Shown piece by piece: positions 28,380 through 45,407 of a stretch of 64,000 nucleotides of DNA; the first letter of the stretch is position 1; each line of letters opens with the position of its first letter. The translations under genes were made by a program, and so were the position numbers. The notes under the pieces were generated by a model. The model did not search any database, had not been told where the DNA came from, and saw nothing but the letters and a program-made list of their open reading frames with translations. The stretch lies in NCBI GenBank assembly GCA_022493055.1, contig CP092781.1:2046001-2110000 (forward strand). The letters are read 5' to 3'. This DNA is from Staphylococcus roterodami. GTDB taxonomy: Bacteria > Bacillota > Bacilli > Staphylococcales > Staphylococcaceae.

Positions 28380-28420
28380 AAAACCACTAACAAATTGCAT
28401 ACACAATATCATTAGTGGTA
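28380..28420 (-). terminator. Terminator of the flavin oxidoreductase gene
   Basis: CCACTAA and TTAGTGG form the stem; on the minus strand TTTTC follows. Confidence 0.65.
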
Positions 28421-28432
28421 AGTTCGAAATGC

Positions 28433-29560: not shown

Positions 29561-30018
29561 TACTTAATTCCTCCTTAAAAATATTGAATTGACTATAACA
29601 TGATTTTTTATCGTTCTCCAATTATCTGTTTATAGATTGAATCATTATGGTAATATTCTTTTTAATTATCGAGCTTGTATTTAAAATCTGTTAAAAAAAT
29701 TAAACGTAACTTTATTTTAAGATGCAGTGTGTCAAGAGGTTTCGAAAAATTTTTTAAATAAATTTTTATGGTTATAAAGAAAGAGTATAAATAGAAGATA
29801 TATAAGTTGATTGTTATTACTAACATTATATCACAAAACCGCTATACAAGAAAAGAATTACAATTATAATGTTTATATACATTTCTTATGCATTATGCCA
29901 ACGCCTTTTCACTTCCGCACTCGCGCTTAAACGCTCGCTTAGACCACCTTATTTTTAGTGATAGGTTCTTACAGAACACAATCACTAAAAAGTAAGGTCA
30001 TTAGGGTTATGTGCGTCT
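29561..30018. other. Intergenic stretch holding the left end of the ICE
   Basis: There is no gene here. The host-to-ICE boundary must be in this stretch. A candidate is GTGTCAAG at 29729-29736, matching the rightmost ICE motif read inward (GTGTAAAC) at six of eight bases. A strong hairpin (about 29951-29996) made of AGTGAT and ATCACT arms lies just beyond the transposase stop and may end its transcript. Confidence 0.5.
29951..29996. terminator. Hairpin downstream of the ICE transposase
   Basis: TTTTTAGTGAT pairs with ATCACTAAAAA, extended by CCTTA and TAAGG; a smaller GTTCT/AGAAC hairpin lies in the loop. It sits right after the transposase stop on its strand and also reads as a barrier to transcription entering from outside. 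Confidence 0.6.
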
Positions 30019-31003
30019 CTAATTATATTCTAACATTCTCATATACTCACTTGTCTTATAATTTTGCTTCATTCTTGGACGCTGATTAATTTGTAGCACG
30101 GCTATTTCTACATCTATATCAGAAACATTTACAAAATCTGTATCTTTAGGAAAATATTGACGTAATAATCCATTTACTTGTTCTATAGAACCACGTTGAT
30201 ATGGACAACCCGGATCGCTAAAATAAACAGAACAATTCAACTCACGTTCAATTAACTCAAATTTCGCAAATTCCTTACCTCTATCAATCGTAATCGTTTT
30301 AATATTTTCTTGTTTCAATATTTCTACAATCGTTGAACATACAACATCAGAACGTCTTGTAGGTAAAATTTTCGCATATAAAAATCTCGTTTTACGTTCT
30401 AAAATCGTTAATAAACAATATCGAGAGGGACGTTTACTCCAAATAGTATCTATTTCATAATGTCCAAATTCTTCACGTTTTACGACTTCTATTGGACCGA
30501 CTACTTATTGAACGATGCTGACCTATTTTAATTTTGCCACGTTCTTCAGTTGTTTTTGTATACTTTTTTCCACCTCGGCGCATATCTTTCACTTTATTTA
30601 CTCTAATTTGTCCAGTATTAATATATCTATATATAGTAGAAAAGCTAACATAATAGCCAATATCTTTTTCCATTTCTGAAGAAATCTGTCTAGGTGACCA
30701 CTTTAAAGACAATTTCTGTTCAATATACTTCTTTATAGTAGGATTTAATGCACGCATCTCTTCCTTCTTTTTTTCTGGCATTTTCTTAGTTTCTTTAGCC
30801 ATTTGATGCGCTTTTACAGGGTCATATGTTCCATCTTCTTGAGAACGATGATTTAACTCATAATAAATCACATTATGATGTCTACCTAATATATTCGCAA
30901 TTTGTAATATGGATAACCCGTCATCAAGATATTTCGCTATTGCTAAACGTGTATCCAAATCAACTGCAACCCTTCTCTTTCGTTGTGTATTCTTTTCAGT
31001 CAT
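30019..31003 (-). pseudogene. IS30-like DDE transposase of the ICE, frameshifted
   Basis: The N-terminal frame (start MTEKNTQRKRRVAVDL near 31003) carries the HTH domain with ILQIANILGRHHNVIYYEL, then meets a stop at 30473-30475. The continuation is open in another frame from about 30495 and ends at 30019: PIEVVKREEFGHYEIDTIW with the first catalytic Asp, TIDRGKEF with the second, and SIEQVNGLLRQYF with the Glu. Removing one base near the GG at 30497-30498 would restore a single protein of about 325 residues, normal for IS30. Because all catalytic residues lie in the second frame, this copy should be unable to excise the ICE by itself unless frameshifting occurs. Confidence 0.85.
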
Positions 31004-31068
31004 TTTCATCTTCTCCTTTACATTTTTAAACATCGTTTATAAAATATAATAGAAGAAGATGTTAAAAG

Positions 31069-31112
31069 AAAGCAACTCCCAAACTTATCAATCGCTTTAG
31101 GGAGTTGCTTTT
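31069..31112 (-). terminator. Terminator at the end of the ICE transfer operon
   Basis: GCAACTCCC and GGGAGTTGC flank a loop of about 19 bases; on the minus strand a T-rich run follows. It separates the lipoprotein gene from the transposase. Confidence 0.85.
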
Positions 31113-31114
31113 AT

Positions 31115-31474
31115 CTATTCTTTTAAATTCTCTTCTTTATAATCTGGTTTATTTTCTTTCATGAACTTTTCAGGTTTTGCATTATAAACTTTTTCATATT
31201 TCTCTGTTGTCTCGTTTTTTCCATATAAACTAGTCCATAATTTAGTACTATCATTATCCCATTTATAAGATAAAGTAATAAATTTCCCATCATTATAAAC
31301 ATTTATATTACTTTTTTTACGTTCAAATTTATTAAAATCACCACTAGTATCACTAGTTCTTTTTTCTTCTAATTTAGAAACTTCCTCAATTTCTTTATCA
31401 TACTTTTTACCGCATGCAATTAAAGCTGTAGATATTACTAAAATCAATGTTATCAATAAAAATCGCTTTGTCAT
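31115..31474 (-). CDS. Putative lipoprotein of the ICE
   Basis: The 119-residue protein has a typical lipoprotein signal peptide: KRFLLITLILVISTALIACGKK, lipobox ALIAC with the cysteine at residue 21. The mature part is highly charged and hydrophilic, with no domain I recognise. Last gene of the transfer operon, just before its terminator. Surface lipoproteins of conjugative elements can act in exclusion or mating-pair contact; that role here is only inferred. Confidence 0.7.
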   Translation of the reverse strand: MTKRFLLITLILVISTALIACGKKYDKEIEEVSKLEEKRTSDTSGDFNKFERKKSNINVYNDGKFITLSYKWDNDSTKLWTSLYGKNETTEKYEKVYNAKPEKFMKENKPDYKEENLKE

Positions 31475-31520
31475 GATATAATCATCTCCTTTTTATTGAA
31501 TTATATCATTATTTTATAAA

Positions 31521-32114
31521 TTATCCACGCCCATTTTTTTGTAAATTAAAACGCTGTACATCATTAATTAACCATTTATCATTTGTACGTACCATATCAA
31601 GTTGTACAGATGTTTTACGGTTCTCAACTTCCTTTTGCCCCTCAGTATCAATACGCTCATTAAACTGCACAAATACTTTATAGTTATCATGCTTAGGGTC
31701 ATACTGATCAAAATATACATGAATATCACTCACTGTTACATCGTCGAAAATACTAAACTTCTCTCTATTATCACTAAACAATACATCATAATATTTTTCT
31801 GTTACTAATGTCTTAAGTGGTTTAGCTTTTTGTTTAAATGATGACCCTTTTTTTAACGTAAATAGCTCTGTTGTAAATGCTTGTGCTGTCTCACGTATTT
31901 GTTTTTCTTCCTCCGCAATCACTGTTTTAGATTGGCGTTTTACACGTTGATGTAATGCCTTATTCGTATCTTTTTTTTGTTGTAATGATTGTTTTAATTC
32001 ACTCACATGATTCTTTTCTTTTTGAACTTGTTGCTTCGTTGTTTGTGTACCTAAAAAATAAGCACTCACTGTTAAAACTGTCACAATCACAAAGCCAATA
32101 ATCTTTAATTTCAT
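31521..32114 (-). CDS. Single-pass membrane protein with VirB8/NTF2-like outer domain
   Basis: This 197-residue protein has one N-terminal membrane helix (KIIGFVIVTVLTVSAYFLG), a coiled-coil stretch rich in K, E and Q (residues about 25-70), then an alpha+beta domain ending DMVRTNDKWLINDVQRF, the strand-turn-strand typical of NTF2-like or VirB8/TcpC-like folds. Such proteins scaffold Gram-positive type IV secretion channels. It lies 6 bp after the cell-wall hydrolase gene, in the transfer operon. No close family name can be given with certainty. Confidence 0.65.
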   Translation of the reverse strand: MKLKIIGFVIVTVLTVSAYFLGTQTTKQQVQKEKNHVSELKQSLQQKKDTNKALHQRVKRQSKTVIAEEEKQIRETAQAFTTELFTLKKGSSFKQKAKPLKTLVTEKYYDVLFSDNREKFSIFDDVTVSDIHVYFDQYDPKHDNYKVFVQFNERIDTEGQKEVENRKTSVQLDMVRTNDKWLINDVQRFNLQKNGRG

Positions 32115-32120
32115 CGTTAT

Positions 32121-33158
32121 CTACTCCTTATCATGAATAAAACTAATGCCAGATTCTACTTTCATTTCTCTTTGCGATACGATATAAGGTCCTTTAATAT
32201 TCATTTCTGTCACAGTAAATGTTTTATCATCTTTCACATCAATCACAACAGCTACATGTCCTGTTACTGGCGGTGCACCACCAGCACCAGGCTCGGCAAT
32301 CATTAACGCACCTACAGCGGGTTTACTATTCACTTTATAACCTTCCTCTTTCGCTCTATCATTCCAAAATTGCGCATGGAACCAATACGTCGATATCGGT
32401 TTTCCCATTTTTTGACGAATACCATAGGCATACCATGTACATTGACCCGCTGTATATAAATTACCTTTACCTGCATCTGAATTACTCCATTTTGGCAATT
32501 TACCACTAAACTTAATATCTTTACCACCAGTAGACTTACATACAGCGCCATCACCATCACTTAATTTTTTCATCATTGATTTTACCGTTGGTATCCATTG
32601 CTTATTCATATTATTCGGGTCATTTGAAGCACCTACAGGCGCATATTTTGGCCCAATTTTCTCTGGTGTCGTTAATCCTTCTTTAATATAAACATCATAT
32701 AAATTCTTTGCGCCTGCCTCAAGTCCAGCTTCAATTGTTGGATACGTAGAATCATGAATCGACTTTGTACCCATCACAGACAATGGATTCTTTTGACGCG
32801 TCGCATTTTCTCCTTTACCCCAACCGGATTCACTCGCAATAATTGCCATAAATAAATTCTCTGGTATTTTATGCTTTTTCGCAATTTTTACAATCACTTT
32901 TCCTTTACCTTCTAATGCGCCACCTTTCGCATTTTGTTCAAATACCGCAATACCTTTATCTTTAACATCACCACCCACACACGACATGTCACCATCTGTT
33001 TGTTTGTCTTCCTCTGGACTAAATACAAACATCAATATCACAGGAAACAAGAAAAACAAAACACAAAACAATATCAGACCAATTTTTAATAATCTAAATT
33101 TAATGCCAATCGGCGTTTGTTTCATCACTTCTTTTACAACAGTCTTTTTATTTACCAT
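32121..33158 (-). CDS. Conjugation cell-wall hydrolase, CwlT/TcpG-like (lysozyme-like plus CHAP)
   Basis: This 345-residue protein is bitopic with one membrane helix (LLKIGLILFCVLFFLFPVIL). It is followed by a lysozyme-like muramidase or glucosaminidase domain with FMAIIASESGWGKGENA (glutamate in SESGWG). A C-terminal CHAP amidase/endopeptidase domain has the cysteine in GQCTWYAYG and the histidine in VTGHVAVVID. This two-domain design matches CwlT of ICEBs1 and Orf14 of Tn916, which open peptidoglycan for the mating channel. It overlaps the 3' end of the VirB6-like gene by 11 bases. Confidence 0.88.
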   Translation of the reverse strand: MVNKKTVVKEVMKQTPIGIKFRLLKIGLILFCVLFFLFPVILMFVFSPEEDKQTDGDMSCVGGDVKDKGIAVFEQNAKGGALEGKGKVIVKIAKKHKIPENLFMAIIASESGWGKGENATRQKNPLSVMGTKSIHDSTYPTIEAGLEAGAKNLYDVYIKEGLTTPEKIGPKYAPVGASNDPNNMNKQWIPTVKSMMKKLSDGDGAVCKSTGGKDIKFSGKLPKWSNSDAGKGNLYTAGQCTWYAYGIRQKMGKPISTYWFHAQFWNDRAKEEGYKVNSKPAVGALMIAEPGAGGAPPVTGHVAVVIDVKDDKTFTVTEMNIKGPYIVSQREMKVESGISFIHDKE

Positions 33159-35061
33159 GTTTATTAATATCCTTTTGATTTTTCAATCGATCATAAACAT
33201 GTTTTGTTTGTGAATTTCGTTTAAATGTCGCCTCATTTGTATGTGAACGTGGTTGATATGGTTTATCTTCTCCAGTTTGTATACGGCGTTTTTCAATATC
33301 TTTATCATAAGAAGATTGAACGTCTTTATTAAACGATTGACTACGTCTTGATACTTCTTTTGGCGGTTGAGACGAATAAGTAGGGCTAAATGATTCTGTT
33401 TGCGGGTTACGTTTAATTTCTTTTTTATGTTTTACATCACGATGCATACCATCATCTTGTGCGATTCGTTTTGATTTCGTATAACCTGACGGTTTTGAAT
33501 AAGATGGTTTCGAATAACTAACTAAACCTACATTAGGAGCGCCATGCATCTCTTCTTGTTGATTACGTCGTTTAATTTCTTTCGAATTATTGATTGAAAT
33601 AGGCGTATCTGGTTGTTGATTTCGCTTTAGATTATTATCATTGTTATTTATCATCGGTGGTTCTGGATTATCACGTTGACCATCACGTTTATTCTTTTTA
33701 TCTTCTGCTCGTTTTTGACGACGTTTATTAAATTCATCTTGTCCTTTGCGCATTACATCAGCACCTAATTTTTGAGGCGATAAACTTAAATTGCCACGTG
33801 TCACAAAATCAATGATTTCACTACGTTTTTTATACAGTACAAACAAAATAATCATTAAGAATATCACATTTAAAAAATAAGCTTGTTGGCTTTCTGGTTT
33901 CACAAATGCATTCGCAATATCAATTGAAAAACCAATCACCACAAATAAAAATGTCATACAGGCACTTAAAATAATATACCCTAATGTACGTGCTAATGCT
34001 TTAAATACTGATATTTCAAAACCAGGGATAAAGCTAATAAGCCAACTAAACGCTAAAAATAAGAATAAAATGAGCGCAAAAGCTGAAAAGATGACTTTCG
34101 CAAAACTAATCGAAAGAAATATAATAGATAAAGCAATCGTAATAATTAATGTAAACATCGCAATACCTAATTGCCCAAATACATGTGTTTGTTTCATAGC
34201 TGTATTATTATATTTATCTACTTCATCTTTAACTTTACTTTCTATTTTTTCTTGTTCATCTTTTGAATTAACTTTTATATCTAAAATATTATCAATTCTG
34301 TTTTTACCTTTTTTCTTGATTTCATCTTCATTTACAGTACCATAATTCATAATCAGATAAGGCTTATATAACGCCATATCAAAATATTGATTACGTATCT
34401 TGTTAATGCCTGAATTTTCATTTACATAATCAATATCACCATTAATAGAACTTGTACTATTCATAATGACATTATTTAAACCTTTACCAACATTATTTGT
34501 ACCTTTAATCACAAAGCTGGCATTCGCAAGGACTCCCACACCAAAACCAATTAAACAAAAGATTAAAAAACCACGTTTTAATGCTTCATGCATATTACCT
34601 TTAACTGAAAAAACAATAAACGCATTTAAACAAATCACAATAAACAACGTCATCACAATATTACTTAACAATTTTTGATAAATATCACCGACAAATTGAC
34701 CGACTTTATCCGCAAAATCGTTTAATACATCAAGCTGATATAAATTCTCTATCGCATAATCAGTAATACTTACAATCAACTTGTCAATTTCAAAAAAGAA
34801 ATTGGTTACATTATTAACTGTTTCTGCGACCTCATCTTTACCAAATGGATTCCAATCTTCATCTTTTTGAAACCATACACGATAACGTTCTAAATCTATA
34901 TCACCATCAGCTTTATCATCTACTTTATACTTTTCAATCTTCGCATCTACCGCATTCGTTGGTTTTCCTACTGGATTAGCGACGGCATCAGCCGTTGCCC
35001 CTGTTATTAAAAACAAGGGCAAAATTAAAAAGCATAAAAGATATAAACTTTTACGCTTCAT
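33148..35061 (-). CDS. VirB6-like polytopic channel protein (ConG/TcpH type)
   Basis: The 637-residue protein has a signal-like N-terminal helix (LYLLCFLILPLFLITGATA), an extracytoplasmic segment, then about seven membrane helices (for example IVMTLFIVICLNAFIVFSV and LIITIALSIIFLSISFAKVIF). A long hydrophilic, basic and Q/N/P-rich tail of about 200 residues follows (KRRQKRAEDKKNKRDGQRDN). The layout is that of ConG of ICEBs1 and Orf15 of Tn916, the VirB6 equivalent in the inner-membrane channel. The tail probably stays in the cytoplasm. Confidence 0.8.
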   Translation of the reverse strand: MKRKSLYLLCFLILPLFLITGATADAVANPVGKPTNAVDAKIEKYKVDDKADGDIDLERYRVWFQKDEDWNPFGKDEVAETVNNVTNFFFEIDKLIVSITDYAIENLYQLDVLNDFADKVGQFVGDIYQKLLSNIVMTLFIVICLNAFIVFSVKGNMHEALKRGFLIFCLIGFGVGVLANASFVIKGTNNVGKGLNNVIMNSTSSINGDIDYVNENSGINKIRNQYFDMALYKPYLIMNYGTVNEDEIKKKGKNRIDNILDIKVNSKDEQEKIESKVKDEVDKYNNTAMKQTHVFGQLGIAMFTLIITIALSIIFLSISFAKVIFSAFALILFLFLAFSWLISFIPGFEISVFKALARTLGYIILSACMTFLFVVIGFSIDIANAFVKPESQQAYFLNVIFLMIILFVLYKKRSEIIDFVTRGNLSLSPQKLGADVMRKGQDEFNKRRQKRAEDKKNKRDGQRDNPEPPMINNNDNNLKRNQQPDTPISINNSKEIKRRNQQEEMHGAPNVGLVSYSKPSYSKPSGYTKSKRIAQDDGMHRDVKHKKEIKRNPQTESFSPTYSSQPPKEVSRRSQSFNKDVQSSYDKDIEKRRIQTGEDKPYQPRSHTNEATFKRNSQTKHVYDRLKNQKDINKHGK

Positions 35062-35076
35062 TTAATCACTCCTTAT

Positions 35077-35319
35077 TTAATTTGTTAAAACTTGAACAGA
35101 ACCTCTAAAAACAAACGCACAACTACCCATCTCAGCTTCTAAGTCAAATAAAGTTACTTTCTCTAAAGGTTTAAATGTTAAATTTTGTTTTGATAAAACA
35201 ATAATTTCTGAACCTAAATCAGCCGAAGCTAATCGATAGGCATAACAATCAAAATCTCGTCTCACATCGTCTTTTCGTAAAAAATAAAAATCTCCATTTT
35301 CATTAAAATCAATTTTCAT
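35077..35319 (-). CDS. Small DUF961/HelP-like protein inside the transfer operon
   Basis: The 80-residue soluble protein shares a pattern with the two DUF961-type proteins of the same ICE: a strand with DFYFL, then YAYRLASADLGSEIIV, compared with YAYKLASTGQGEQVTV in the protein at 43.0-43.4 kb. I read it as a shortened paralogue. HelP of ICEBs1 helps the helicase during rolling-circle replication; whether this short copy does so is unknown. It lies between the coupling protein and VirB6-like genes, an unusual location for the family. Confidence 0.55.
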   Translation of the reverse strand: MKIDFNENGDFYFLRKDDVRRDFDCYAYRLASADLGSEIIVLSKQNLTFKPLEKVTLFDLEAEMGSCAFVFRGSVQVLTN

Positions 35320-35326
35320 TACATGC

Positions 35327-36685
35327 TCACTCCTTATTTAATATTTGTTTGACATCCGCCACAAAGTCATATTGTTCCATGAGAGGCGCATCAAATAAAA
35401 TCGGTTCATTATATTGTCCAAGTATTGAAATATAACCACGTCCAATATCTGATTCATGAATCGGTTGAAAGTCTTTATCTGTTTGACCAAAGGTCATACG
35501 ATAACCGTCAACTGACAAATTACCCATCGACACACGTAAGCCCAATTGGTCACGCACGTTACCTTTAATCACATCTGCATCAGGTCGCTGTGCTGTTAAA
35601 AACATAAATACACCAGCTTGACGACCTTTCATAATGATGTTAATTAAATAATCATTCATTTCTTGAAGTTCTTTTTTATCTAAAGTAGACGTGAACGCTG
35701 TCACTTCATCAAAAATCACAAAATAGGGTGGTAAATCAAAGTTTCTAAAATTACTGCCTAATTGATAATGTTCGCTTTCACTCATCATTCTAAAGCGATG
35801 TTCCATTTCTTCATTGGCTTCTCTCAATTGTTTAAAAATTTGACCTTTCGTATCTGCCACTTTTTCAGCACCGATCACATTTTTCATAAATGATAAATCA
35901 GATACTTTCGGGTCTAATAACCGTACTTCTGCATCACGCTTAAATAATTCTCTAATCATATAGAATAAAAAGTACGTTTTACCGCCACCGGTCACACCAG
36001 TAATTAAAGCATGTGGTGCTTTCACAAAATCCCAAAGGATTTGATGTGTAATATAAATCTTCGTATCATAATAAGTTGTCTCTGGTGCTTCTGTACCTTC
36101 CATAACGATACGTTTTTTATATTTAAGAGGCATAAACTCATATCTCAAATAACGTCCAATATGACGCTTCTCAACAAGCTCACAATTAAACATCGGTTCA
36201 ATGATTGATTCTAATTCTAAATAGTCGTCTTGAAAACGTGAACCATCTTTTTTGACATGTATCACAAATGTTTTACGTCTACGTTTATAAAACAATGTTG
36301 GATAATAATCATATTCTGTTTTCTTATAATCAATATCTAAATACTCTATTGTTTTCTTAATCACTGTGCGATTATGAAAGCCTTGTGTTTCAATCATTTC
36401 AGCCAAATCTTTTTCACGAAATCTTAAAACAAGTTGCGCAAATAATTTTGCGATAATAAAAATAACCAAGGTACCAATCACAAGATATAAAAAATGTGGC
36501 TTAAAGTACTGATAGACTTCAACCACATCTAAAGCTTTTTGTTGACCAATATAACCTTGCCATAACATTAATATTCGATAGGCTAAAAAGATAAATGCGA
36601 ACACACCCGCAAAAATAAAATCAATATATTTAAAATAAGGTTGAATACGTACACCTTTAAATAAAGCAATTTCATTCATTGCCAT
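35327..36685 (-). CDS. FtsK/SpoIIIE-type coupling protein (ConQ/TcpA)
   Basis: This 452-residue protein has two N-terminal membrane helices (FIFAGVFAFIFLAYRILML; FLYLVIGTLVIFIIAKLFA) and a cytosolic FtsK-like motor with Walker A TGVTGGGKTYF and Walker B PPYFVIFDEV. It couples the relaxase-DNA complex to the secretion channel. The ATG at 36685 (MAMNEIALFKG) has AAGGAGTGA upstream; the longer frame to 36709 overlaps the upstream gene. ConQ of ICEBs1 and Orf21 of Tn916 are the analogues; there the gene sits beside the relaxase, here it lies downstream of the VirB4 gene. Confidence 0.88.
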   Translation of the reverse strand: MAMNEIALFKGVRIQPYFKYIDFIFAGVFAFIFLAYRILMLWQGYIGQQKALDVVEVYQYFKPHFLYLVIGTLVIFIIAKLFAQLVLRFREKDLAEMIETQGFHNRTVIKKTIEYLDIDYKKTEYDYYPTLFYKRRRKTFVIHVKKDGSRFQDDYLELESIIEPMFNCELVEKRHIGRYLRYEFMPLKYKKRIVMEGTEAPETTYYDTKIYITHQILWDFVKAPHALITGVTGGGKTYFLFYMIRELFKRDAEVRLLDPKVSDLSFMKNVIGAEKVADTKGQIFKQLREANEEMEHRFRMMSESEHYQLGSNFRNFDLPPYFVIFDEVTAFTSTLDKKELQEMNDYLINIIMKGRQAGVFMFLTAQRPDADVIKGNVRDQLGLRVSMGNLSVDGYRMTFGQTDKDFQPIHESDIGRGYISILGQYNEPILFDAPLMEQYDFVADVKQILNKE

Positions 36686-36689
36686 TAAA

Positions 36690-36914
36690 TCACTCCTTGC
36701 CATGTTCATAACGCTTCATTGCTTCAATAACGATATTAACTTGTTCTTCTCTACGTGCTAATTTATAACCTTCATACCAACCAAATAACTCCTTAGTCTT
36801 TCTTTGATGTCCTTCATAAGCAGCTTTTTTATATTTTTCATAACGTGGTTTTAAAACAATTAAAGAAATTATTGCAGTAACAACAATCATCAAAGGAATC
36901 AAGTAACTTATCAA
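36690..36914 (-). CDS. Small membrane protein of the ICE, 74 residues
   Basis: One N-terminal membrane helix (MISYLIPLMIVVTAIISLIVL) is followed by a charged helical tail (RREEQVNIVIEAMKRYE). It overlaps the preceding gene by 4 bases, which supports translation in the operon. The family is unknown; a small accessory subunit of the channel is possible. Confidence 0.6.
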   Translation of the reverse strand: MISYLIPLMIVVTAIISLIVLKPRYEKYKKAAYEGHQRKTKELFGWYEGYKLARREEQVNIVIEAMKRYEHGKE

Positions 36915-37156
36915 TTTCTTTTCACATCCTTAAAACAATCATCTAAAGCTGAATCATAAGACCGTAATTCAATTGAATTACTTAAATACTTAACAATTGA
37001 GACATCTACATTTAATTCTTTACAAAGCATCTTAAATGTAGAACTTTCAAAATCAACATACCGATTTATGATTCTAATTAAAGAAAAATAATATATCGCA
37101 AAAACAAACAAAATAGTAAAAATAATTATAATTAACAATTTTAAAAATATTAGCAT
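36911..37156 (-). CDS. Small membrane protein of the ICE, 81 residues
   Basis: One long hydrophobic helix (LKLLIIIIFTILFVFAIYYF) is followed by a soluble tail of about 50 residues. It lies 11 bp downstream of the VirB4 gene and overlaps the next gene by 4 bases. No family recognised. Confidence 0.6.
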   Translation of the reverse strand: MLIFLKLLIIIIFTILFVFAIYYFSLIRIINRYVDFESSTFKMLCKELNVDVSIVKYLSNSIELRSYDSALDDCFKDVKRN

Positions 37157-37167
37157 AAAATCATTCC

Positions 37168-39663
37168 TTATATCGCAAATTTTTCTTCTGCTTTTGAACT
37201 TGCTGAATCTTCTTGTGTTCTAAATGCTTCCGTCATTTCTTCAAAAGGACAATGTACGACCATTTTGCCCACACGTCCGTAGAAATCACTGAAAATGCAT
37301 TGACCTTTCTTCAAGTCTTTCAACATTTCCATATTCTCAGGACTTTCTTTTGAATATTCTAAACCAAGCGATTTTAAAATATCCTCTCGTTCATCTTTTT
37401 CATCAAATGCGAAATGACAACCAAAGTTACCGCCGTCTTCATCGGCTTTATCTTTAACAGATTGGGTAATAAAAACTAGCGAATTATTTTCAGATCGACC
37501 CATACGTTTAATACCTTTAGCTACTTTTTTACCTTGTCGTGAGGCACTAAATGCCCAACCTTCATCAATAAAGAGTGTTGTTTGTATCTGTCTACGTGAA
37601 CCAAATTTCTGTAAAAATTTACCGATTAAAAGCATTAAAGTAATCCCATTTTTCTCACCAGTTGAATAACCCGATGGGTCATCACCAGCCTTCGGCATAT
37701 CTAAACCTTGAACTTGTAATATCGTTGCTTTTTCTTGAATATTCAAAGCCGGATTACTACCATCACTAAACACAAGTTTTAATATATTATTTTGTGTTTT
37801 TTCAAAAAGTAAATCACCAGCTTGACTTACATGTTCATCTTCATCATTTTGAAGCTTTTTAATTACATCTAATGACCCAACTTGTTGACCTTTTTCACGT
37901 TCCTCAACTGTTTCAGTAATAGCCCTATAAATTGCTGTTTCAACACGATGTTCATTTTCAAAGGATTTAATTTCATCAAATACTGATTTCAACATTTCAT
38001 TAGCTTCAATACCATCAAGAAAAACAATCGGGTCTAAACAACCATAATTACTAGGCTTTTTATAATCCAATGTCACATACTTAAATGTTTTTAAATGATT
38101 AACAAATAGGGGATATTTACGTTGCATGTCTTCACTTTCTGTAATTTTATTAAACCAATCTGCAAATTCACTTTTCGGGTCCCAATAAATCATTTGACCT
38201 TTAAAGAATGATGTATATATCCAAAGTAACTTAGCTAAAAATGATTTACCTTTACCTGTTTGACCTGTGATTAATACGTGTGGGCTATCACTGACTGCTC
38301 CTGATATACCTTTGGCTGCTAATAATAAACTAAATAAAATAATATCTCTTGAACTTGCAACGGCTTCCTCACGTGAAACAGAACGTATAAACTTATCAAT
38401 ACGTCCGATATAAAAACCAGTTTTTGTACCTAAACTTTGCGACACGCCAAATAAATTTTCTGCAATCCCAGTTGCTGTCGTACGTTGCACCCAATATTTA
38501 TTAATAAACAATGGATTGCCATGTAAAATTTGATAATAAAGTTGTAATTGGTCAGCTAATGGATTAACCGCATAAATATTTGTTTCTTTTAAACGTTTAA
38601 TTAAACGTTTCGCTTTACGCTTACAATCCTTTAAATTATCGCTCTTAATCACAAATGAACAAGACCACTCTATAAATACACCTGAACCTGTCACTTCTTT
38701 TTCCATTTGTTCTAATACGAATAAATTATCTTGAATATCTTCAGATGCATTATCACCAGCTGATTGTTTTTCTCTTGCTTGTGCTTTATGATTAATTTTT
38801 GCACGATCAAATTTCTTTTTTACTTTATCATTCTCAACAATTTTTGCTTTTACATGACATTCCACAGGGAACGGCATATTTTGTGCTTTTTCATAAATAT
38901 GTGTAAATTCCATATCAAGTGGAAAGTCGTCAACAACAATTGTTGTTGTATAGAATGTTTCATTTTCATTTGTCACTTTCAATACACGCATATTTGTAGG
39001 GTCAATCACCACATTACATACATCTGTTACGGCACGTCTTGATGATTCCTCTTGTACATCATGCGTCGCATTTGAAATAAATGGCTTACGCACGATATAA
39101 GCAAGCTCATTTTCAGTTAAGCGTTCACCCTCAATACTTAAAAAACTATCCGCAAGTTCTCGTTCAAACACTTCATAACGACTTAATACTTTTTCATCTA
39201 ATGAAACATTAAAACCAAAATTCGAAATCATTCGTTCCGCTGTATCTGATAATGTACTCTTAAGCATTTCTTTAATCGAAATCGCATCATCACTTAATTC
39301 TCGAAGTTTCACACCCATGACAAACGAGTTACGTGTAATCATTTGTAATTCTTGTTCTAACACATCAATCGTTTCTTGGGCATAATAATTAGCCACATCA
39401 AACGCTGAATCATCAAAGTCTTGACTAATTTCTTTAAATTTATTACGTAAATCTAAATCATGCTCATACATTTCAAAATGAAAATCCTGATAACCTTTAA
39501 TCGATTCAAGAAAATATTTCATACGTTTTTTTGAAGCTTCTTTTTTATCGTAATTGGCTGTTGAAATAGATTCAGAACGAATACGATAATACGCCCAAAC
39601 TTCACCGCTTTTCGTTAATAACAAATTATTTTTCATCCCTGCATAGGGGGCTTTTAACTCCAT
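37168..39663 (-). CDS. VirB4-family ATPase of the conjugation machinery (ConE/TcpF)
   Basis: This 831-residue cytosolic or peripheral ATPase powers the type IV secretion channel. Walker A is VLITGQTGKGKSFLAKL (about residue 460) and Walker B is TTLFIDEGWAFS (about residue 700), followed by VFITQSVKDK. The N-terminal half is the usual VirB4 interaction region. Start MELKAPYAGM with GGAGGGATGAC upstream. It corresponds to ConE of ICEBs1 and Orf16 of Tn916, an essential conjugation gene. Confidence 0.92.
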   Translation of the reverse strand: MELKAPYAGMKNNLLLTKSGEVWAYYRIRSESISTANYDKKEASKKRMKYFLESIKGYQDFHFEMYEHDLDLRNKFKEISQDFDDSAFDVANYYAQETIDVLEQELQMITRNSFVMGVKLRELSDDAISIKEMLKSTLSDTAERMISNFGFNVSLDEKVLSRYEVFERELADSFLSIEGERLTENELAYIVRKPFISNATHDVQEESSRRAVTDVCNVVIDPTNMRVLKVTNENETFYTTTIVVDDFPLDMEFTHIYEKAQNMPFPVECHVKAKIVENDKVKKKFDRAKINHKAQAREKQSAGDNASEDIQDNLFVLEQMEKEVTGSGVFIEWSCSFVIKSDNLKDCKRKAKRLIKRLKETNIYAVNPLADQLQLYYQILHGNPLFINKYWVQRTTATGIAENLFGVSQSLGTKTGFYIGRIDKFIRSVSREEAVASSRDIILFSLLLAAKGISGAVSDSPHVLITGQTGKGKSFLAKLLWIYTSFFKGQMIYWDPKSEFADWFNKITESEDMQRKYPLFVNHLKTFKYVTLDYKKPSNYGCLDPIVFLDGIEANEMLKSVFDEIKSFENEHRVETAIYRAITETVEEREKGQQVGSLDVIKKLQNDEDEHVSQAGDLLFEKTQNNILKLVFSDGSNPALNIQEKATILQVQGLDMPKAGDDPSGYSTGEKNGITLMLLIGKFLQKFGSRRQIQTTLFIDEGWAFSASRQGKKVAKGIKRMGRSENNSLVFITQSVKDKADEDGGNFGCHFAFDEKDEREDILKSLGLEYSKESPENMEMLKDLKKGQCIFSDFYGRVGKMVVHCPFEEMTEAFRTQEDSASSKAEEKFAI

Positions 39664-39697
39664 GTCATCCCTCCATTAAAAATAGCCCCGTTAGGGA

Positions 39698-40087
39698 CTA
39701 TTTCAATTTAATTATTTTCTTGTCATGATATTTCACTTCTTCATCATATGCATAATGTACATTGCGCATTTGAATGTTAAACACATACATCATAAAATCC
39801 CAAAGAAAGAATATCAGTTTCTTACCATCTTGTTTTAATTTTACTAATTGCTTCGTCATATAATAGGGGAGTACTGTAAAATAAATAATCGTTAAACCTG
39901 GTACTAAAGACGTTAATGTATTAAATCCAGCCTTAAGATATAATAATATTAAAATCAATTCAATCACAAACAACGTACCGACCCAGTCTAAACGAATACC
40001 TTTTGACCACCGGTAACTTCCTGTAAATTCATACATCACAATCGGCTGTTCAAATGTTCGTTTCAAATTGTAAGCTTTTTTATCCAT
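39698..40087 (-). CDS. TcpE-family conjugation membrane protein
   Basis: The 129-residue protein begins MDKKAYNLKRTFEQP, has two membrane helices in the middle (TLFVIELILILLYLKAGF and the following LVPGLTIIYFTVLPYY) and a basic C terminus. Length, helix positions and place before VirB4 match TcpE/ConD (Orf17 of Tn916). The ATG at 40087 follows GGGAG, which itself contains the end of the upstream gene; the longer frame is rejected. Confidence 0.75.
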   Translation of the reverse strand: MDKKAYNLKRTFEQPIVMYEFTGSYRWSKGIRLDWVGTLFVIELILILLYLKAGFNTLTSLVPGLTIIYFTVLPYYMTKQLVKLKQDGKKLIFFLWDFMMYVFNIQMRNVHYAYDEEVKYHDKKIIKLK

Positions 40088-40092
40088 ATCGA

Positions 40093-40353
40093 TCAGCTCC
40101 CAAAAATCAACTTCCAAAGCCCTGATACTGAATTAAACACTGTTTCAGGACCTTTGGAAATCAAGAACATCAAACCACCAATCACAAACAATGCAAGCAT
40201 ATGACCATATTTACCCGTTGCCCATTTTACAATACCAACAACCAATACAATAATACCAATCGCAGTACCAACCTCTTTATTAACCCATTGACCAAGTGGA
40301 TTAATGGAAGGTGCATCACCTAGTACAAACATTAAATTAAATAAATGTTCCAT
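40093..40353 (-). CDS. TcpD-like small membrane protein
   Basis: This 86-residue protein has two hydrophobic helices (TAIGIIVLVVGIVKWATG and GHMLALFVIGGLMFLISKG) and starts MEHLFNLMF after GGAGGTTAAAGTG. Its 3' end abuts the TcpE-like gene. The arrangement TcpC-TcpD-TcpE-TcpF is that of clostridial pCW3 and ICEBs1/Tn916-type systems. It probably forms part of the channel. Confidence 0.7.
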   Translation of the reverse strand: MEHLFNLMFVLGDAPSINPLGQWVNKEVGTAIGIIVLVVGIVKWATGKYGHMLALFVIGGLMFLISKGPETVFNSVSGLWKLIFGS

Positions 40354-40357
40354 CACT

Positions 40358-41464
40358 TTAACCTCCAATTGTTGTTGTTAATTTTTTAACATAATACTTA
40401 CCGTCTTTTTTCGTAATATCTAAGGTGTAATGTTCTAAGTTTTCAAGTGGTGACCCTTTATCTTTCATTAAAACCTCTGCTTTAACAACATAATCGTCAC
40501 CATTAGGATAAATACGTAAATCACTGATTTTAGACACTTCACGTGTATCTTCTAACCCTTCGGGGTTATCCATTAAATAAGCCATATCATCCGATTTACT
40601 TTTACAATATTTATCAAAAAACTCTTCAACAAATGCTTTTAGTTTCGGATTATCTTCACGCTTTTCATTCTCCAAACTATCTTTAACAAGTGTTGCTTTT
40701 TTCAATTGATTACTTGGAATCGTAGAAAAATGAGGGTATTCAATCACCACGTACTTATTATTTTCACTTTTAACTGGAATGTTTAATAATGCCTTCTTAG
40801 TTTCTGTTCGTTCTTTTTCTTCTGTCTTTGTTTCATATTCATCCTTTTTATCTTTGTCCTTTTTATCCTTTTCCTTTTTAACTTTAACCTCCTTTTTCTC
40901 TGTAATTTTTAAATCGTAACTTACAATATACTGAATGATTGTTTGTTTATCTTTACGTTTAATATTAAAAAATTCTTTTTCATTCAGCTTACGCTCAACA
41001 TTTTCAGTATTTTCTGTAGGTGTCTTATAATCAGAGGGATAAAAATCCGCTAACGCTTTTTGTCGCTCTTCTTTTGCCTTACCATCTTTAGGAATAGTCA
41101 TATATGCATCAATATACTTATCAGCATATAACTTTAAATTAGGATTATACTGAACTGTTTCAGCGTTATCTTCATATTTCTTTTGAATTTCTTGCGTTTT
41201 ATTAACTGCTTCTTTACTTTCGTTGTTCGCTTTAGAAGCTCTAATGAAAGAGGCAATCAACAAAATGGTTAACAACACTAAAATCATATAAAAAACAATC
41301 ACAATCTTTTTTCTGTGATTGCGATACTTCGGTAATGATTTACGTTCTTCTTCAGGAACATCAAAACGCTTGCCTTTTTTTGAAAATCTTGATAATATCA
41401 ACTTGTTGATGATACTCAAAAAAGCTTTACGTATATTACTTAGAAAAGCTTTGATAGGAATCAT
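40358..41464 (-). CDS. VirB8-like conjugation protein (TcpC/ConC family)
   Basis: The 368-residue protein has a cytosolic basic N terminus, one membrane helix (IVIVFYMILVLLTILLIASF), a lysine/glutamate-rich linker around KEKDKKDKDKKDEYETK and two NTF2-like outer domains, the last ending GDDYVVKAEVLMKDK and YTLDITKKDGKYYVKKL. This matches TcpC of pCW3 and Orf13/ConC, the VirB8-like scaffold of Gram-positive channels. It overlaps the relaxase gene by 29 bases. Confidence 0.8.
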   Translation of the reverse strand: MIPIKAFLSNIRKAFLSIINKLILSRFSKKGKRFDVPEEERKSLPKYRNHRKKIVIVFYMILVLLTILLIASFIRASKANNESKEAVNKTQEIQKKYEDNAETVQYNPNLKLYADKYIDAYMTIPKDGKAKEERQKALADFYPSDYKTPTENTENVERKLNEKEFFNIKRKDKQTIIQYIVSYDLKITEKKEVKVKKEKDKKDKDKKDEYETKTEEKERTETKKALLNIPVKSENNKYVVIEYPHFSTIPSNQLKKATLVKDSLENEKREDNPKLKAFVEEFFDKYCKSKSDDMAYLMDNPEGLEDTREVSKISDLRIYPNGDDYVVKAEVLMKDKGSPLENLEHYTLDITKKDGKYYVKKLTTTIGG

Positions 41465-42536
41465 CTCCTTTCTTTTTACGCTTTAGATTTTCTAAATAAT
41501 GATTAATTCTATCGGTGTGTTCATCATTAAATGATGAATGCGCCAATATTTTATTCAGAAAATCTGTATCCCCAAGTAATCCTTCGGATTGTGCCATTGC
41601 TTCAGCTGTTAAAACCGTATCTAACGTGGTAGCTACTTGTTTACATAACCAATCAATATTATCCTCAATTGACTTTAAACTCGGTTTTATACTTAAACTA
41701 ATTTTATCAGCACCTTTAATAAAACGTGACCATTCTTGATATACTGGCCACCTTGATTTTCGACTATCTGATACATCTTTCGGCTCAGTTACAAAACGCA
41801 TACTATTATTTAAAACACCTTTAACAATATCTGATATGCTTGATGTTTCTGTTAAAATATTTGCGCAATTTTCCGCATTACTTCGTCGCATTTGTATTTC
41901 ATAACGATTCCATAATCCAAAATCTTCAACAGGTGTTTTTAATTTATACGCCATTTCATAGTTCTTTTCATAAAAGCGACAGTACATATCACTTTTTTTA
42001 GAGCCGATATAAAAAGTTGAACCTTTAGACTGTCCGTTGGACAATTTAAAACCAGCAATTGAACTCGCTGTTCTAAATTTTGAAATACATTCACCATGCT
42101 CAGCCTTTTTAATTAATCGTGGTATTTTTAAATATGTTTTTGTATCATCAATCGCAATATCAATTCTTGTAAAACGCGCCTTTTTAGCCGCACAGCGCTT
42201 AAAAAAGTCTTGCCACGTTTCATTGCGGTTGATTAAATAATGTTCAAATTCTCGACAACCAGAACCAGTTAACTGTAGATGAAAGCCCATACCCTCATCT
42301 TTATCCGAATAAAAGATTTGAATATTACCAAACGTATAACCACGATTGTAAAAGTACAAGCCACTATTACGATGTTTAAACACTGCCCGAGGCAGTTTCA
42401 AAACATCCTCCATAATGGTGAAAATAGAGGGCACCTGAAAAGTCACTTGAACCCAGTCAACAACTGCCTCCAAGCCACATTTTTCTGGCTTCGCTACCCC
42501 CCTATTAGTAAGGGGGGTAGAAGCTTGATTTTCCAT
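41436..42536 (-). CDS. NicK/Orf20-type relaxase (Rep_trans family)
   Basis: The 366-residue protein belongs to the rolling-circle initiator-relaxase family of ICEBs1 NicK and Tn916 Orf20. WVQVTFQVPSIFTI opens the family domain and RFTRIDIAIDD holds the metal-binding core motif. Tyrosines in YCRFYEKNYEMAYKL are the candidate nicking residues. It nicks oriT to start both transfer and plasmid-like replication of the excised element. The ATG at 42536 has AGGAGG seven bases upstream, so the TTG at 42554 is rejected. Its first codons encode the oriT hairpin. Confidence 0.85.
   Translation of the reverse strand: MENQASTPLTNRGVAKPEKCGLEAVVDWVQVTFQVPSIFTIMEDVLKLPRAVFKHRNSGLYFYNRGYTFGNIQIFYSDKDEGMGFHLQLTGSGCREFEHYLINRNETWQDFFKRCAAKKARFTRIDIAIDDTKTYLKIPRLIKKAEHGECISKFRTASSIAGFKLSNGQSKGSTFYIGSKKSDMYCRFYEKNYEMAYKLKTPVEDFGLWNRYEIQMRRSNAENCANILTETSSISDIVKGVLNNSMRFVTEPKDVSDSRKSRWPVYQEWSRFIKGADKISLSIKPSLKSIEDNIDWLCKQVATTLDTVLTAEAMAQSEGLLGDTDFLNKILAHSSFNDEHTDRINHYLENLKRKKKGDDSYQSFSK
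42494..42520. other. oriT: Probable oriT nick-site hairpin of the ICE
   Basis: CTACCCCCC and GGGGGGTAG form a perfect 9-bp inverted repeat around a 9-base loop. Read on the minus strand the loop and right arm are CTAATAGGGGGGT. This nearly equals the ICEBs1/Tn916 oriT core as I remember it (CTAACAGGGGGGT). It lies inside the 5' end of the relaxase gene, close to the oriT-nicK arrangement of ICEBs1. Confidence 0.8.
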
Positions 42537-42549
42537 GAAAAAACCTCCT

Positions 42550-42571
42550 ATCAAATCGCAAGCGATTTGAT
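42550..42571. repeat. Perfect 10-bp inverted repeat before the relaxase start
   Basis: ATCAAATCGC and GCGATTTGAT are separated by AA. It lies 14 bp upstream of the relaxase ATG and covers the ribosome-site side, so it could act as an operator or control translation. Confidence 0.6.
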
Positions 42572-42696
42572 AACTTAAGGCTGTCGCTTCCCTTTCTTAA
42601 CGCGCCTTTGTCGCAGGCTCCGCCCAAATGCTTAACGCCGTCCCGGCTTGCATTTCTGCGCCTGCAGGCGCTAAAAGTCCAGCTCGCCTTAAGTTA
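42571..42696. other. GC-rich structured region upstream of the relaxase
   Basis: TAACTTAAGGC (42571-42581) and GCCTTAAGTTA (42686-42696) form an 11-bp closing stem. The enclosed 104 bp are far richer in G+C than the rest of the ICE and contain a 14-bp perfect palindrome, GCGCCTGCAGGCGC, and other short inverted arms. It encodes no protein. A single-strand origin, an extended oriT or a structured leader RNA are possible; see findings. Confidence 0.6.
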
Positions 42697-42715
42697 AACA
42701 ATACAAATGATATAT

Positions 42716-43018
42716 TTAACTATCTACATCACCAATATAGATACAATCCTTCAAATCAATTTGTAGTAATCGCCCGTGTCCTGCTTCTTTCAAACTAAAA
42801 CACAATAAGCAGACGTCAGTGTATATCCTCGGTCTGCCTGATGGTAAACGACTTTTAACATAGTCACCATTAAATTTTTCTTGTATTTCCTTTGCGATAA
42901 GCATTAATGATAATGCTTCACCTGTATTAATTCTAGATGCAATATATGACAACATGCCTTCAGATAATTTTAAAGTACGTGCATAAGGCGCTAAGTTGTC
43001 AGCTGTATAAAATTCCAT
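42716..43018 (-). CDS. Conserved ICE protein of unknown function, 100 residues
   Basis: Start MEFYTADNL; soluble, mixed alpha/beta, no motif recognised. The SRLPSGRPRIYTD segment is basic. It follows the DUF961 gene by 3 bases and precedes the structured region, so it belongs to the replication/processing module. No function can be given. Confidence 0.6.
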   Translation of the reverse strand: MEFYTADNLAPYARTLKLSEGMLSYIASRINTGEALSLMLIAKEIQEKFNGDYVKSRLPSGRPRIYTDVCLLCFSLKEAGHGRLLQIDLKDCIYIGDVDS

Positions 43019-43021
43019 ACA

Positions 43022-43357
43022 CTAACCTTGTTGTGCACCTTTTTTATGTTGAATTGTCGCAATTTGTCTAATATCTTCTGCCTTAATACTCGGTTGAATT
43101 GAATGGAAATCACCTGAAGATTGTACATATTGTTTTGCTTCTACACCTACAAGTTCACAAACTGACATAATATCAAGTTTTACTTCTTTAGGTACTTTTA
43201 CTGTTACTTGTTCACCTTGTCCAGTTGACGCTAATTTGTATGCATATAATTTTTGATCGGTTTTTTCTCCATCTTCATATTTGTATTTCTCATCAACACC
43301 CATGAAATATAAATCTCCAAACGTTTCTTTTAAATCAAATTTCGGACTCCATGCCAT
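43022..43357 (-). CDS. HelP-like (DUF961) protein
   Basis: The 111-residue soluble protein has the DUF961 pattern of ICEBs1 HelP and Tn916 Orf22/Orf23: N-terminal KFDLKETFGDLYFMG, central KLYAYKLASTGQGEQVTV and C-terminal SIQPSIKAEDIRQIA. HelP works with the host helicase PcrA to unwind the nicked element. GAGGAATTTATT precedes the ATG. Confidence 0.75.
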   Translation of the reverse strand: MAWSPKFDLKETFGDLYFMGVDEKYKYEDGEKTDQKLYAYKLASTGQGEQVTVKVPKEVKLDIMSVCELVGVEAKQYVQSSGDFHSIQPSIKAEDIRQIATIQHKKGAQQG

Positions 43358-43399
43358 AATAAATTCCTCATTTCTTTTTATAATTTTTATTTATACGCT

Positions 43400-43702
43400 T
43401 TATGCTTTTGTTTCTAAACTATAAATATCATCAGCTGAAAAGCTTGTATATAAATTACAATAACCTGTATTCATATCTTGATATACTCTAGGTTTGATTG
43501 TTAAATTATCAAAATCAACACGTTCTAAAGAATCAAAGTATTTTTCATTTGACAGTCTAACTTTAACTTGTTCACCAATATCAACACATATAATCGTATA
43601 CAGATAATAAGCTTCATCAAACCGCGATATTTTTTCAACATGGGACAAATAACGAAACTCTTTCCCCATAGTTGCTTCAATATCAATGACTGGTTCTATC
43701 AT
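43400..43702 (-). CDS. Second HelP-like (DUF961) protein
   Basis: The 100-residue protein starts MIEPVIDIEATMGKEF at 43702, with GAGGTGA five bases upstream. The frame is open further upstream to 43789 but has no second ribosome site. LSHVEKISRFDEAYYLY, then GEQVKVRLSN and YCNLYTSFSADDIYS follow the order of the neighbouring DUF961 protein. Paired DUF961 genes are also found in Tn916 (orf22, orf23). Confidence 0.7.
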   Translation of the reverse strand: MIEPVIDIEATMGKEFRYLSHVEKISRFDEAYYLYTIICVDIGEQVKVRLSNEKYFDSLERVDFDNLTIKPRVYQDMNTGYCNLYTSFSADDIYSLETKA

Positions 43703-43842
43703 AAAAGTCACCTCGGCAGACTCATACAAATCAGAGTTTTTTAGGGTCGCACGAATAGGAATAACTCCCGCAAATCCGTACCACTGCATTTTTGATAATG
43801 GAGTGTCTATGCTTCTCCTGACCTATTCAATTTTTTTGAAAC

Positions 43843-44127
43843 CTATCGGTTCATCACCTCAAAGAATTCTAGGTCTAATTTATCAATATGATACATCTTG
43901 CATATAAATGCGTTAGACACACCATACTTTTTTAAATATACATAATCCTTATAAGTGAATTGATAGTCATTATTTTTCGCTTTATTACACACATCTAATA
44001 TACAAAAATATGCAATTTTATACATCTTACAAATATGACGTTTTGAAATACCATGAAATCTTAAAATAACAAAATTTCTATAATCTAAACGCTTAAAATC
44101 ATAAAAATAAGGTGTAAACTCTGTCAT
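43843..44127 (-). CDS. Small two-repeat helix-turn-helix protein at the ICE right end
   Basis: This 94-residue protein begins MTEFTPYFYDF after AAAGGAATTGATCGTT. It has two similar halves: YRNFVILRFHGISKRHICKMYKI and YKDYVYLKKYGVSNAFICKMYHI patterns, spaced by about 42 residues. Each half resembles a helix-turn-helix with the Gly in the turn and the shared ICKMY recognition part. As the outermost gene, reading into the transfer operon, it may regulate the element. It is not a family I recognise. Confidence 0.6.
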   Translation of the reverse strand: MTEFTPYFYDFKRLDYRNFVILRFHGISKRHICKMYKIAYFCILDVCNKAKNNDYQFTYKDYVYLKKYGVSNAFICKMYHIDKLDLEFFEVMNR

Positions 44128-44176
44128 AACGATCAATTCCTTTCTTAAGAATTTGTTGTTAATTAGAGTTTACACC
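44111..44176. repeat. 12-bp inverted repeat at the ICE right end
   Basis: GGTGTAAACTCT (44111-44122) and AGAGTTTACACC (44165-44176) are exact inverted copies 42 bp apart. The outer copy ends at the host junction, so it is part of the terminal repeat. The inner copy is within the first codons of the HTH gene. Confidence 0.7.
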
Positions 44177-45407
44177 ACACTTTCGCATTTAAATCTTTAT
44201 AACTAATATTTTTTTTGTTTGAAAGTTTTAATTCAGATAATGTTGGTGTAGATGCGCCATTTACTGCAATTGTATAGGGTACATAACTTTCAGCTTTTGC
44301 TTTAGATCCTGTTTTAACAGTAATTTCAATTTTTTTAACATCTTTCGCATGAACTAGATTTGCTGAATAGTCCTTTGAATTTAAATATACAACTCTCTTA
44401 CCACCATTTTTAAAGTAAACAGTGTAGTATGCTTTTTTTGCATGTTTCAAATCACGATCACTAACGCCTCTATCATATTTCAATACTGATTTAACTTTTG
44501 CTGTTAAATTTTTGTAATTTGTCCAAGGTTTATTTGAAAATGAAAGATTCGATAAAATGTTTGTAGATGTACCATTTAAATTAATTGAATATGGAACTTG
44601 ATAATTTACTTTAGCTTTATCTTTCACATGTTTTTTAATATCTACATTAATATTGATACTTTTAATATTACTTGTATTGATTAAATTCGCTGTGTAAACA
44701 CCTGATTTTAAATCAATTACTCTCTTTGTCCCATTTTTAAAATGAACTGTATATTTTGCTTGCTTCGAAAGTCTCAAATCAATATCACTAATTCCTCGAT
44801 TTGATTTTAAAACTGATTTTACTTTATTCTCCAAATCTTTATAGCTAATATTTTGGTTCTTATTAAATGTTAAACTTGATAATATGTTTGTAGATGTACC
44901 ATTCACAGTAATTGTATATGGTACTTGATAATTTGTTTTAACTTTATTGTTATCTTTCACATGCTTTTTAGTATCTACGTTTACACTAATTGCTTTAATA
45001 TCACTTGTATTGATTAAGTTCGCTGTGTAAACACCTGATTTTAAATCAATTACTTTCTTTGTCCCATTTTTAAAATGAACTGTATATTTTGCTTGTTTTG
45101 ATAGTCTTAAATCAATATCACTAATACCTCGATTGGATTTTAAGACTGATTTCACTTTATTCTCCAAATCTTTGTAACTTATATTTTGGTTCTTATTTAA
45201 AGTTAAACTTGATAATATGTTTGTAGATGTACCGTTCACAGTAATTGTATACGGTACATTAATTTTAGAATATCCGTGATGTAACGAACTTGATGATTTA
45301 TCCAATTGCTTAGCTGCGGCAGATGCTTCGTTAGTATTAAAGTTTGCTCCTGTTGATGCTATAACACCTAATGCTAATGTTGTTGTAATCAATGACTTAA
45401 ATTTCAT
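44163..45407 (-). pseudogene. map: Map/Eap extracellular adherence protein, truncated by the ICE
   Basis: The 414-residue frame has a signal peptide (SLITTTLALGVIASTGANF, cleavage near ASA) and MAP domains of about 110 residues. Repeats 1 and 2 (from VPYTITVNGTSTNILSS) are almost identical; repeat 3 is divergent (NLSFSNKPWTNYKNL). Repeat 4 breaks off after NKKNISYKDLNAKV, and the final WCKL is encoded by the ICE end. Map/Eap is secreted and binds host plasma and matrix proteins and inhibits neutrophil proteases. The three whole domains may still be made and function. The missing part is not on the other side of the ICE. Confidence 0.9.

What the first reader, a model, noticed from the sequence alone, without database searches (positions are those of the whole stretch)
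29561..44180. Two distant core regions are joined through the ICE, consistent with a large chromosomal inversion
Left of the ICE the genes run clpB, cdr, addBA, spsAB, pgi, argGH, glpQ, gudB, rocD, OYE. Right of it they run map, hlb, lukGH, groESL, sdrH, agr. In reference S. aureus chromosomes, as I know them, these blocks lie near 0.9 and 2.1 Mb and both clpB and agrB point the same way. Here clpB is on the minus strand and agrB on the plus. An inversion of the segment between OYE and map, spanning the terminus, gives exactly this order and polarity. The ICE lies at the joint, so recombination between two oppositely oriented ICE copies is a simple mechanism. The distances from origin are similar on both sides, as is typical for tolerated symmetric inversions.
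Basis: partly seen in the sequence, partly recalled or inferred. Interest (0 to 1): 0.9.

Follow-up and report, generated by a model that had tools for sequence, protein, structure and literature searches.

The report
Core block relocated between ICE6013-like copies
In this Staphylococcus a 69,000-base piece of core chromosome has left its usual place, flipped and moved about a million bases away, most likely because several copies of the same mobile element recombined with each other.

Summary
In detail: at window 29724-44178 a 14,455-bp ICE6013-like element joins two core regions about 1.1 Mb apart in relatives. The interpretation needs correcting. No net 1.1-Mb inversion was found: spots at 1.2 and 1.75 Mb keep relatives' order and strand, and the other joint is ppiB | ICE | yjcG, not map beside mnh. 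Instead a 68.9-kb block, symporter to OYE, has left 0.945 Mb and lies flipped at 2.007-2.076 Mb between two same-way ICE copies. Five ICE copies were found. One sits at each of the three joints, in the orientations that ICE-ICE recombination requires. The OYE and ppiB sides, now 1.13 Mb apart, carry the two halves of one target duplication (AGAT), and ICE ends are re-assorted relative to the two copies elsewhere. The genome matches S. roterodami Zoo-28, whose relocation was published in 2022 and seen in Nanopore data (PMC9132046). That text has no occurrence of 'ICE6013' or 'recombination'. The event is known; element identity and mechanism are additions.

The parts
29724..44178 (+). ICE copy D (14,455 bp), one of five copies; genome 2,075,724-2,090,178
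1..29723 (-). right-hand 29.7 kb of the relocated 68.9-kb core block (clpB to OYE); the block as a whole is genome 2,006,799-2,075,723 and continues left of the window to the cut symporter gene
   Evidence: collinear and inverted against G020 and G043
28433..29560 (-). OYE (NADH:flavin oxidoreductase; namA in PMC9132046), last gene of the block
29720..29723 (+). AGAT, half of the target duplication of the original ppiB/OYE insertion; its partner abuts ICE copy B on the ppiB side, genome about 944.4 kb
30022..31033 (-). IS30-type transposase, in two overlapping reading frames (30473-31033 and about 30022-30504)
32121..33158 (-). CHAP plus glucosaminidase cell-wall hydrolase of the ICE
33148..35061 (-). 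CD3337/EF1877-family mobilome membrane protein
35327..36709 (-). FtsK/SpoIIIE-type coupling ATPase (role inferred)
37168..39663 (-). conjugation ATPase (AAA_10; TcpF-like, below curated cut-off)
40358..41464 (-). TcpC conjugation protein
41436..42554 (-). Rep_trans-type relaxase (MobT-like, below curated cut-off)
44179..45407 (-). remaining part of map, cut at its 3' side by the ICE; right flank of the recipient site
   Evidence: PMC9132046 gives a map fragment at 2,090,178-2,091,407

Best explanation
A 68.9-kb core block (symporter to OYE) was moved from about 0.945 Mb to about 2.0 Mb and flipped by homologous recombination among three resident ICE6013-like copies: I1 between ppiB and OYE, I2 between symporter and yjcG (both minus), and I3 in map (plus). 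The outcome is ppiB-ICE-yjcG at the old site and aminotransferase-ICE-block-ICE-map at the new one. Shown: the arrangement, an ICE at all three joints, orientations that fit, the AGAT halves at the two now separate sides of I1, re-assorted ICE ends and shared identical tracts between copies. Inferred: that RecA-type recombination did it, and the order of steps. Two successive inversions (I1 x I3, then the product x I2) keep every gene on the chromosome throughout, so I rate this route about 0.5; excision of a circle by I1 x I2 followed by insertion into I3 about 0.35.
For: Five ICE copies, found by search and each delimited at both ends. Joints and gene order. Relatives lack an ICE at the three sites and keep the old adjacencies: ppiB-OYE 18 of 24; symporter within about 1.4 kb of yjcG in 6 of 8 relatives, the other two (G022, G023) giving no symporter match there; aminotransferase-map in 3 of 3. 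In G043 the OYE-side and ppiB-side flanks abut at one point (L042 13,644 and 13,642), and in this genome they end and begin with AGAT at ICE copies D and B. Ends: copies A and E, which are not at the joints, have left/right end types alpha-a and beta-b; B is alpha-b and D is beta-a, as an exchange between copies predicts. Identical tracts: C=D over 4,816 and 3,235 bp although C and D differ at 5.86% overall; B=D over 2,005 and 1,532 bp at 5.90%. The block reads the same way relative to its ICEs at both sites. No net inversion at the two places tested. Independent report of the same arrangement, in Nanopore data before Illumina polishing (PMC9132046).
Against: The flanks at the other two joints are not clean insertion sites. 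About 1.1 kb (symporter 3' end and nearly all of an esterase gene) between the C-right and B-left flanks is missing, and a search of the genome for it gave only a 34-base chance-level match. At map about 0.2 kb or more is missing between the flanks, the size being uncertain because of its repeats. Extra deletions must be assumed. The C-right flank has no duplication partner, and the B-left and D-right flanks share 5 bp although they should belong to different insertions. The copies are mosaics throughout, A and E included, so the crossovers cannot be assigned and the two routes not told apart. Mosaicism could partly come from short-read polishing of repeats.
Confidence: 0.82

Rival explanations
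1. A single 1.1-Mb inversion between two opposite ICE copies.
For: The window joint alone fits it, and copy B at 0.944-0.959 Mb is opposite to copy D.
Against: The second joint is ppiB | ICE | yjcG, a third ICE bounds the block at 1.992-2.007 Mb, and spots at 1.2 and 1.75 Mb are not inverted.
Confidence: 0.03
2. Assembly error: the assembler crossed between 14-15 kb ICE copies, and the true order is that of the relatives with three ICE insertions.
For: Copies share identical tracts up to 4.8 kb, and PMC9132046 gives a Nanopore read N50 of about 13 kb, shorter than the ICE. No reads could be examined here.
Against: [quoted passage not shown] C and D differ through about 5 kb in their middle. 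Two wrong crossings would be needed.
Confidence: 0.1
3. Transposase-driven movement: the ICE ends, acting as IS30-type ends, moved the block as a composite unit or rearranged it, without homologous recombination.
For: An IS30-type transposase is present; missing DNA beside ICE ends at two joints looks like element-adjacent deletion.
Against: An ICE remains at the old site with one AGAT half, while the other half travelled with the block; re-assorted ends and long identical tracts point to recombination inside the element. The transposase is in two frames in all five copies, so activity is uncertain.
Confidence: 0.07
4. The block was lost by deletion and regained from another cell by conjugation or transduction into the ICE at map.
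For: ICE6013 has been proposed to drive core-genome transfer (PMC4036114, passages).
Against: The block contains fabI and, by recall, other essential genes, so loss should be lethal. Block divergence from G043 (pieces 87-94%) resembles other places (93% at 1.2 and 1.75 Mb), so no foreign source is visible; a donor of the same species is not excluded.
Confidence: 0.05

Closest known systems
Relocation reported for S. roterodami Zoo-28 (PMC9132046; section 18 read, other passages seen)
   Same: Same event: about 69 kb from namA to yrbD inverted and placed in map/eap, transposase genes at both sides and at the old site; the second map fragment coordinates 2,090,178-2,091,407 coincide with the ICE end and map ORF end found here.
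   Different: 'ICE6013' and 'recombination' do not occur in its held main text. Here the flanking elements are identified, counted, delimited and compared, and a mechanism is inferred. Their first map fragment (1,991,191-1,992,912) runs past the ICE left end that I place at 1,991,650.
IS256-mediated 1.04-Mb inversion in S. aureus OC8 (PMC5065196, passages)
   Same: Oppositely oriented mobile-element copies recombine; heterogeneous target duplications and adjacent deletions are used as traces.
   Different: There a short IS and one net inversion; here a 14-15 kb ICE and a net translocation with flip of 69 kb.
ICE6013 of S. aureus (PMC4036114, PMC7563843, PMC5320670 passages)
   Same: DDE-transposase ICE of similar size with a MobT-type relaxase and many insertion sites.
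   Different: Those passages concern insertion, core recombination near the element and mobilisation; none of the passages seen describes relocation of a core block between copies.
Unstable chromosome rearrangements in S. aureus small-colony variants (PMC6778178; listing only)
   Same: Large rearrangements of the S. aureus chromosome.
   Different: Not read; elements and reversibility not compared.

Membership tests
ICE6013 family | IS30-type DDE transposase at one end | tested here: inconclusive
   N-terminal half matches NCBIfam IS30 transposase at 64.9 bits, below its cut-off of 80; gene lies in two overlapping frames in all five copies
ICE6013 family | Rep_trans/MobT relaxase and Tn916-superfamily conjugation genes | tested here: met
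   Rep_trans, TcpC, AAA_10, FtsK and CHAP pass Pfam cut-offs; the MobT model hit is below its cut-off
ICE6013 family | short target duplication (3 bp, recalled) and many AT-rich sites | tested here: met
   copies A and E have matching flanks of at least 3 bp and the ppiB/OYE site AGAT; B, C and D do not pair as they stand
ICE6013 family | sequence identity to the reference element | not tested
   reference ICE6013 was not fetched; related conjugation ATPase at 80-83% in 5 other genomes of 84 searched
single replichore-spanning inversion | both joints reciprocal and interior reversed | tested here: not met
repeat-mediated homologous recombination | a long repeat at every joint in fitting orientation | tested here: met
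repeat-mediated homologous recombination | insertion duplications split between joints | tested here: inconclusive
   met at ppiB/OYE; not clean at the other two sites
repeat-mediated homologous recombination | dependence on RecA | not testable with these tools
   needs an experiment

The most novel reading that the evidence does not exclude
Two same-way ICE copies around 68.9 kb of core genes form a composite unit that can still leave as a circle or be mobilised with the ICE, so an ordinary stretch of core chromosome has become potentially mobile; this would give a concrete route for the core-genome transfer that has been inferred around ICE6013.
Probability: 0.15. Interest if true: 0.65.

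Novelty: new member of a known kind. Interest (0 to 1): 0.4.

Why it matters
Gene order is highly conserved in the S. aureus group. This case indicates that multi-copy ICEs can act as large portable repeats that move and flip a core block, break a host gene at the new site and lose DNA at the old one, while the block keeps its orientation relative to replication. It also warns that one joint seen in a 64-kb window can look like a megabase inversion when the net change is a translocation. If the block can still excise, it would link ICE copy number to core-genome mobility.

Tried and rejected
Rejected: a single large inversion (second joint and two interior spots). I tried to assign crossovers in order to choose between the two routes; all five copies are mosaic and the tracts conflict with any single simple scheme. 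I tried to pair all target duplications: A, E and ppiB/OYE pair, the other ends do not pair cleanly, and the 5-bp match between B-left and D-right remains unexplained. I looked for the missing 1.1 kb elsewhere in the genome without success. A third interior spot (1.45 Mb, L063) was fetched but not searched. A comparison with other S. roterodami strains was not possible: I found none in the collections searched. Literature: the searches listed no paper that, by title or abstract start, describes an ICE6013-mediated relocation; only PMC9132046 holds both 'Zoo-28' and 'roterodami'.
Full report
Where the window lies. The window is bases 2,046,001-2,110,000 of a single 2,850,917-bp contig. PMC9132046 (section 18 and passages seen) reports for S. 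roterodami Zoo-28 a map fragment at 2,090,178-2,091,407. These numbers are exactly the ICE right end and the end of the map ORF found here (window 44,178 and 45,407), so I take the genome to be Zoo-28.

The observation. An element of 14,455 bp occupies 29,724-44,178. Its genes include an IS30-like transposase, a Rep_trans relaxase, TcpC, conjugation ATPases and a CHAP hydrolase (the IS30 and MobT model hits are below their curated cut-offs). I call it ICE6013-like from these genes, its size, its many sites and its short target duplications; the reference ICE6013 sequence was not compared. In 18 of 24 same-genus relatives OYE lies within about 2.3 kb of ppiB; here they are 1.13 Mb apart. The joint is therefore real in the assembly.

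Five copies. A search of the whole genome finds copies A 573,254-588,562 (+), B 944,406-959,189 (-), C 1,991,650-2,006,798 (+), D 2,075,724-2,090,178 (+, the window's) and E 2,811,423-2,825,871 (+). In 84 genomes of the genus, 6 including this one have a related conjugation ATPase; the other 5 show one match each, with at most 3 candidates scored per genome, so this genome itself shows 3 there.

What is joined to what. Copy B lies between mnhA-kapB-ppiB and yjcG-ltaA-ugtP-murE (gene names partly recalled from sequence, ppiB and yjcG supported). Copy C lies between an aminotransferase gene and a cut symporter gene followed by fabI. Copy D lies between OYE and map. Between C and D lie 68,925 bp, which align end to end, inverted, with about 0.918-0.986 Mb of G020 and 0.899-0.964 Mb of G043. 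Relatives have symporter and yjcG within about 1.4 kb in 6 of 8 cases, with no symporter match at that place in G022 and G023, and aminotransferase next to map in 3 of 3. Six-kb spots at 1.2 and 1.75 Mb lie in the same order and strand in G020 and G043. The present chromosome thus has a flipped translocation of 68.9 kb, not a 1.1-Mb inversion.

Why ICE-ICE recombination. First, every joint bears an ICE, and the block has the same direction relative to its ICEs at the old and new sites: B is minus with the block's old direction, C and D are plus with the block flipped. Second, the OYE flank at D ends with AGAT and the ppiB flank at B begins with AGAT, and in G043 these two flanks abut at one point: one ICE once sat between ppiB and OYE, and its two sides are now 1.13 Mb apart. 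Third, the left ends fall in two types that differ by about a third over the first kb (alpha: A, B, C; beta: D, E) and the right ends in two types (a: A, C, D; b: B, E). A and E, which are not at the joints, are alpha-a and beta-b. Reading the ends at the joints back to the old sites gives I1 (ppiB/OYE) beta-b, I2 (symporter/yjcG) alpha-a and I3 (map) alpha-a, while the present B is alpha-b and D beta-a. Fourth, copies that differ at 3-7% overall share long identical tracts, C and D 4,816 and 3,235 bp, B and D 2,005 and 1,532 bp, as repeated exchange would leave. Such tracts are not confined to the joint copies: A and B share 3,294 bp, C and E 3,195 bp, A and E 2,600 bp.

What does not fit. 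The other two sites are not clean. About 1.1 kb between the symporter and yjcG flanks, present in G018, G020 and G043, has no match in this genome beyond 34 bases; the symporter is cut and the esterase gene nearly all gone. At map about 0.2 kb or more is missing between the flanks. The C-right flank has no duplication partner, and B-left and D-right share 5 bp although the model puts them in different insertions. Element-adjacent deletion, or a second ICE insertion followed by deletion, would explain the first two; the 5-bp match may be chance or target preference. The mosaics do not reveal single crossovers.

Route. Excision of a circle by I1 x I2 and insertion into I3 gives the same order. 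The first keeps all genes in the chromosome throughout; the second needs re-insertion before the circle, which carries fabI and by recall other essential genes, is lost. I prefer the first, weakly. dif lies at 1,351,808 (pattern recalled; one exact match, none for the reversed control). If base 1 is near the origin, which was not tested, the block now lies on the other replication arm at a similar distance from the origin, and the flip keeps its genes co-oriented with replication.

Artefact. No reads could be examined. [quoted passage not shown] Two bat isolates of the same species have the usual order according to the same paper, so the change is within the species.

Novelty. The relocation is in print. 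In the held main text of that paper 'ICE6013', 'inversion' and 'rearrangement' have 0 occurrences and 'recombination' 0. Of 29 papers holding 'ICE6013' none describes such a relocation by title or abstract start; I read passages of only some. Element-mediated inversions in S. aureus are known, for instance IS256 in OC8 (PMC5065196, passages).

Noticed in passing
window 30022-31033 and the left ends of all five ICE copies: The IS30-type transposase lies in two overlapping reading frames in all five copies, with a similar overlap in the two end types although these differ by about a third; programmed frameshifting or shared decay are both possible.
   Followed up: partly
G000:C1:2811423-2825871 (L028): ICE copy E interrupts a polysaccharide-deacetylase-like gene beside the his genes, icaB by recall; the family hit is weak.
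   Followed up: partly
G000:C1 about 959.2 kb and 2006.8 kb: Symporter 3' end and nearly all of the neighbouring esterase gene are missing from the genome.
   Followed up: yes
left flank of copy B and right flank of copy D: A 5-bp match between flanks that the model assigns to different insertions.
   Followed up: no
G043:C1:1685490-1687985: The taken-for S. argenteus genome has one related ICE conjugation ATPase (82%), at a different place.
   Followed up: no
G000:C1:1991191-1992912: The first map fragment given in PMC9132046 extends beyond the ICE left end placed here at 1,991,650.
   Followed up: no
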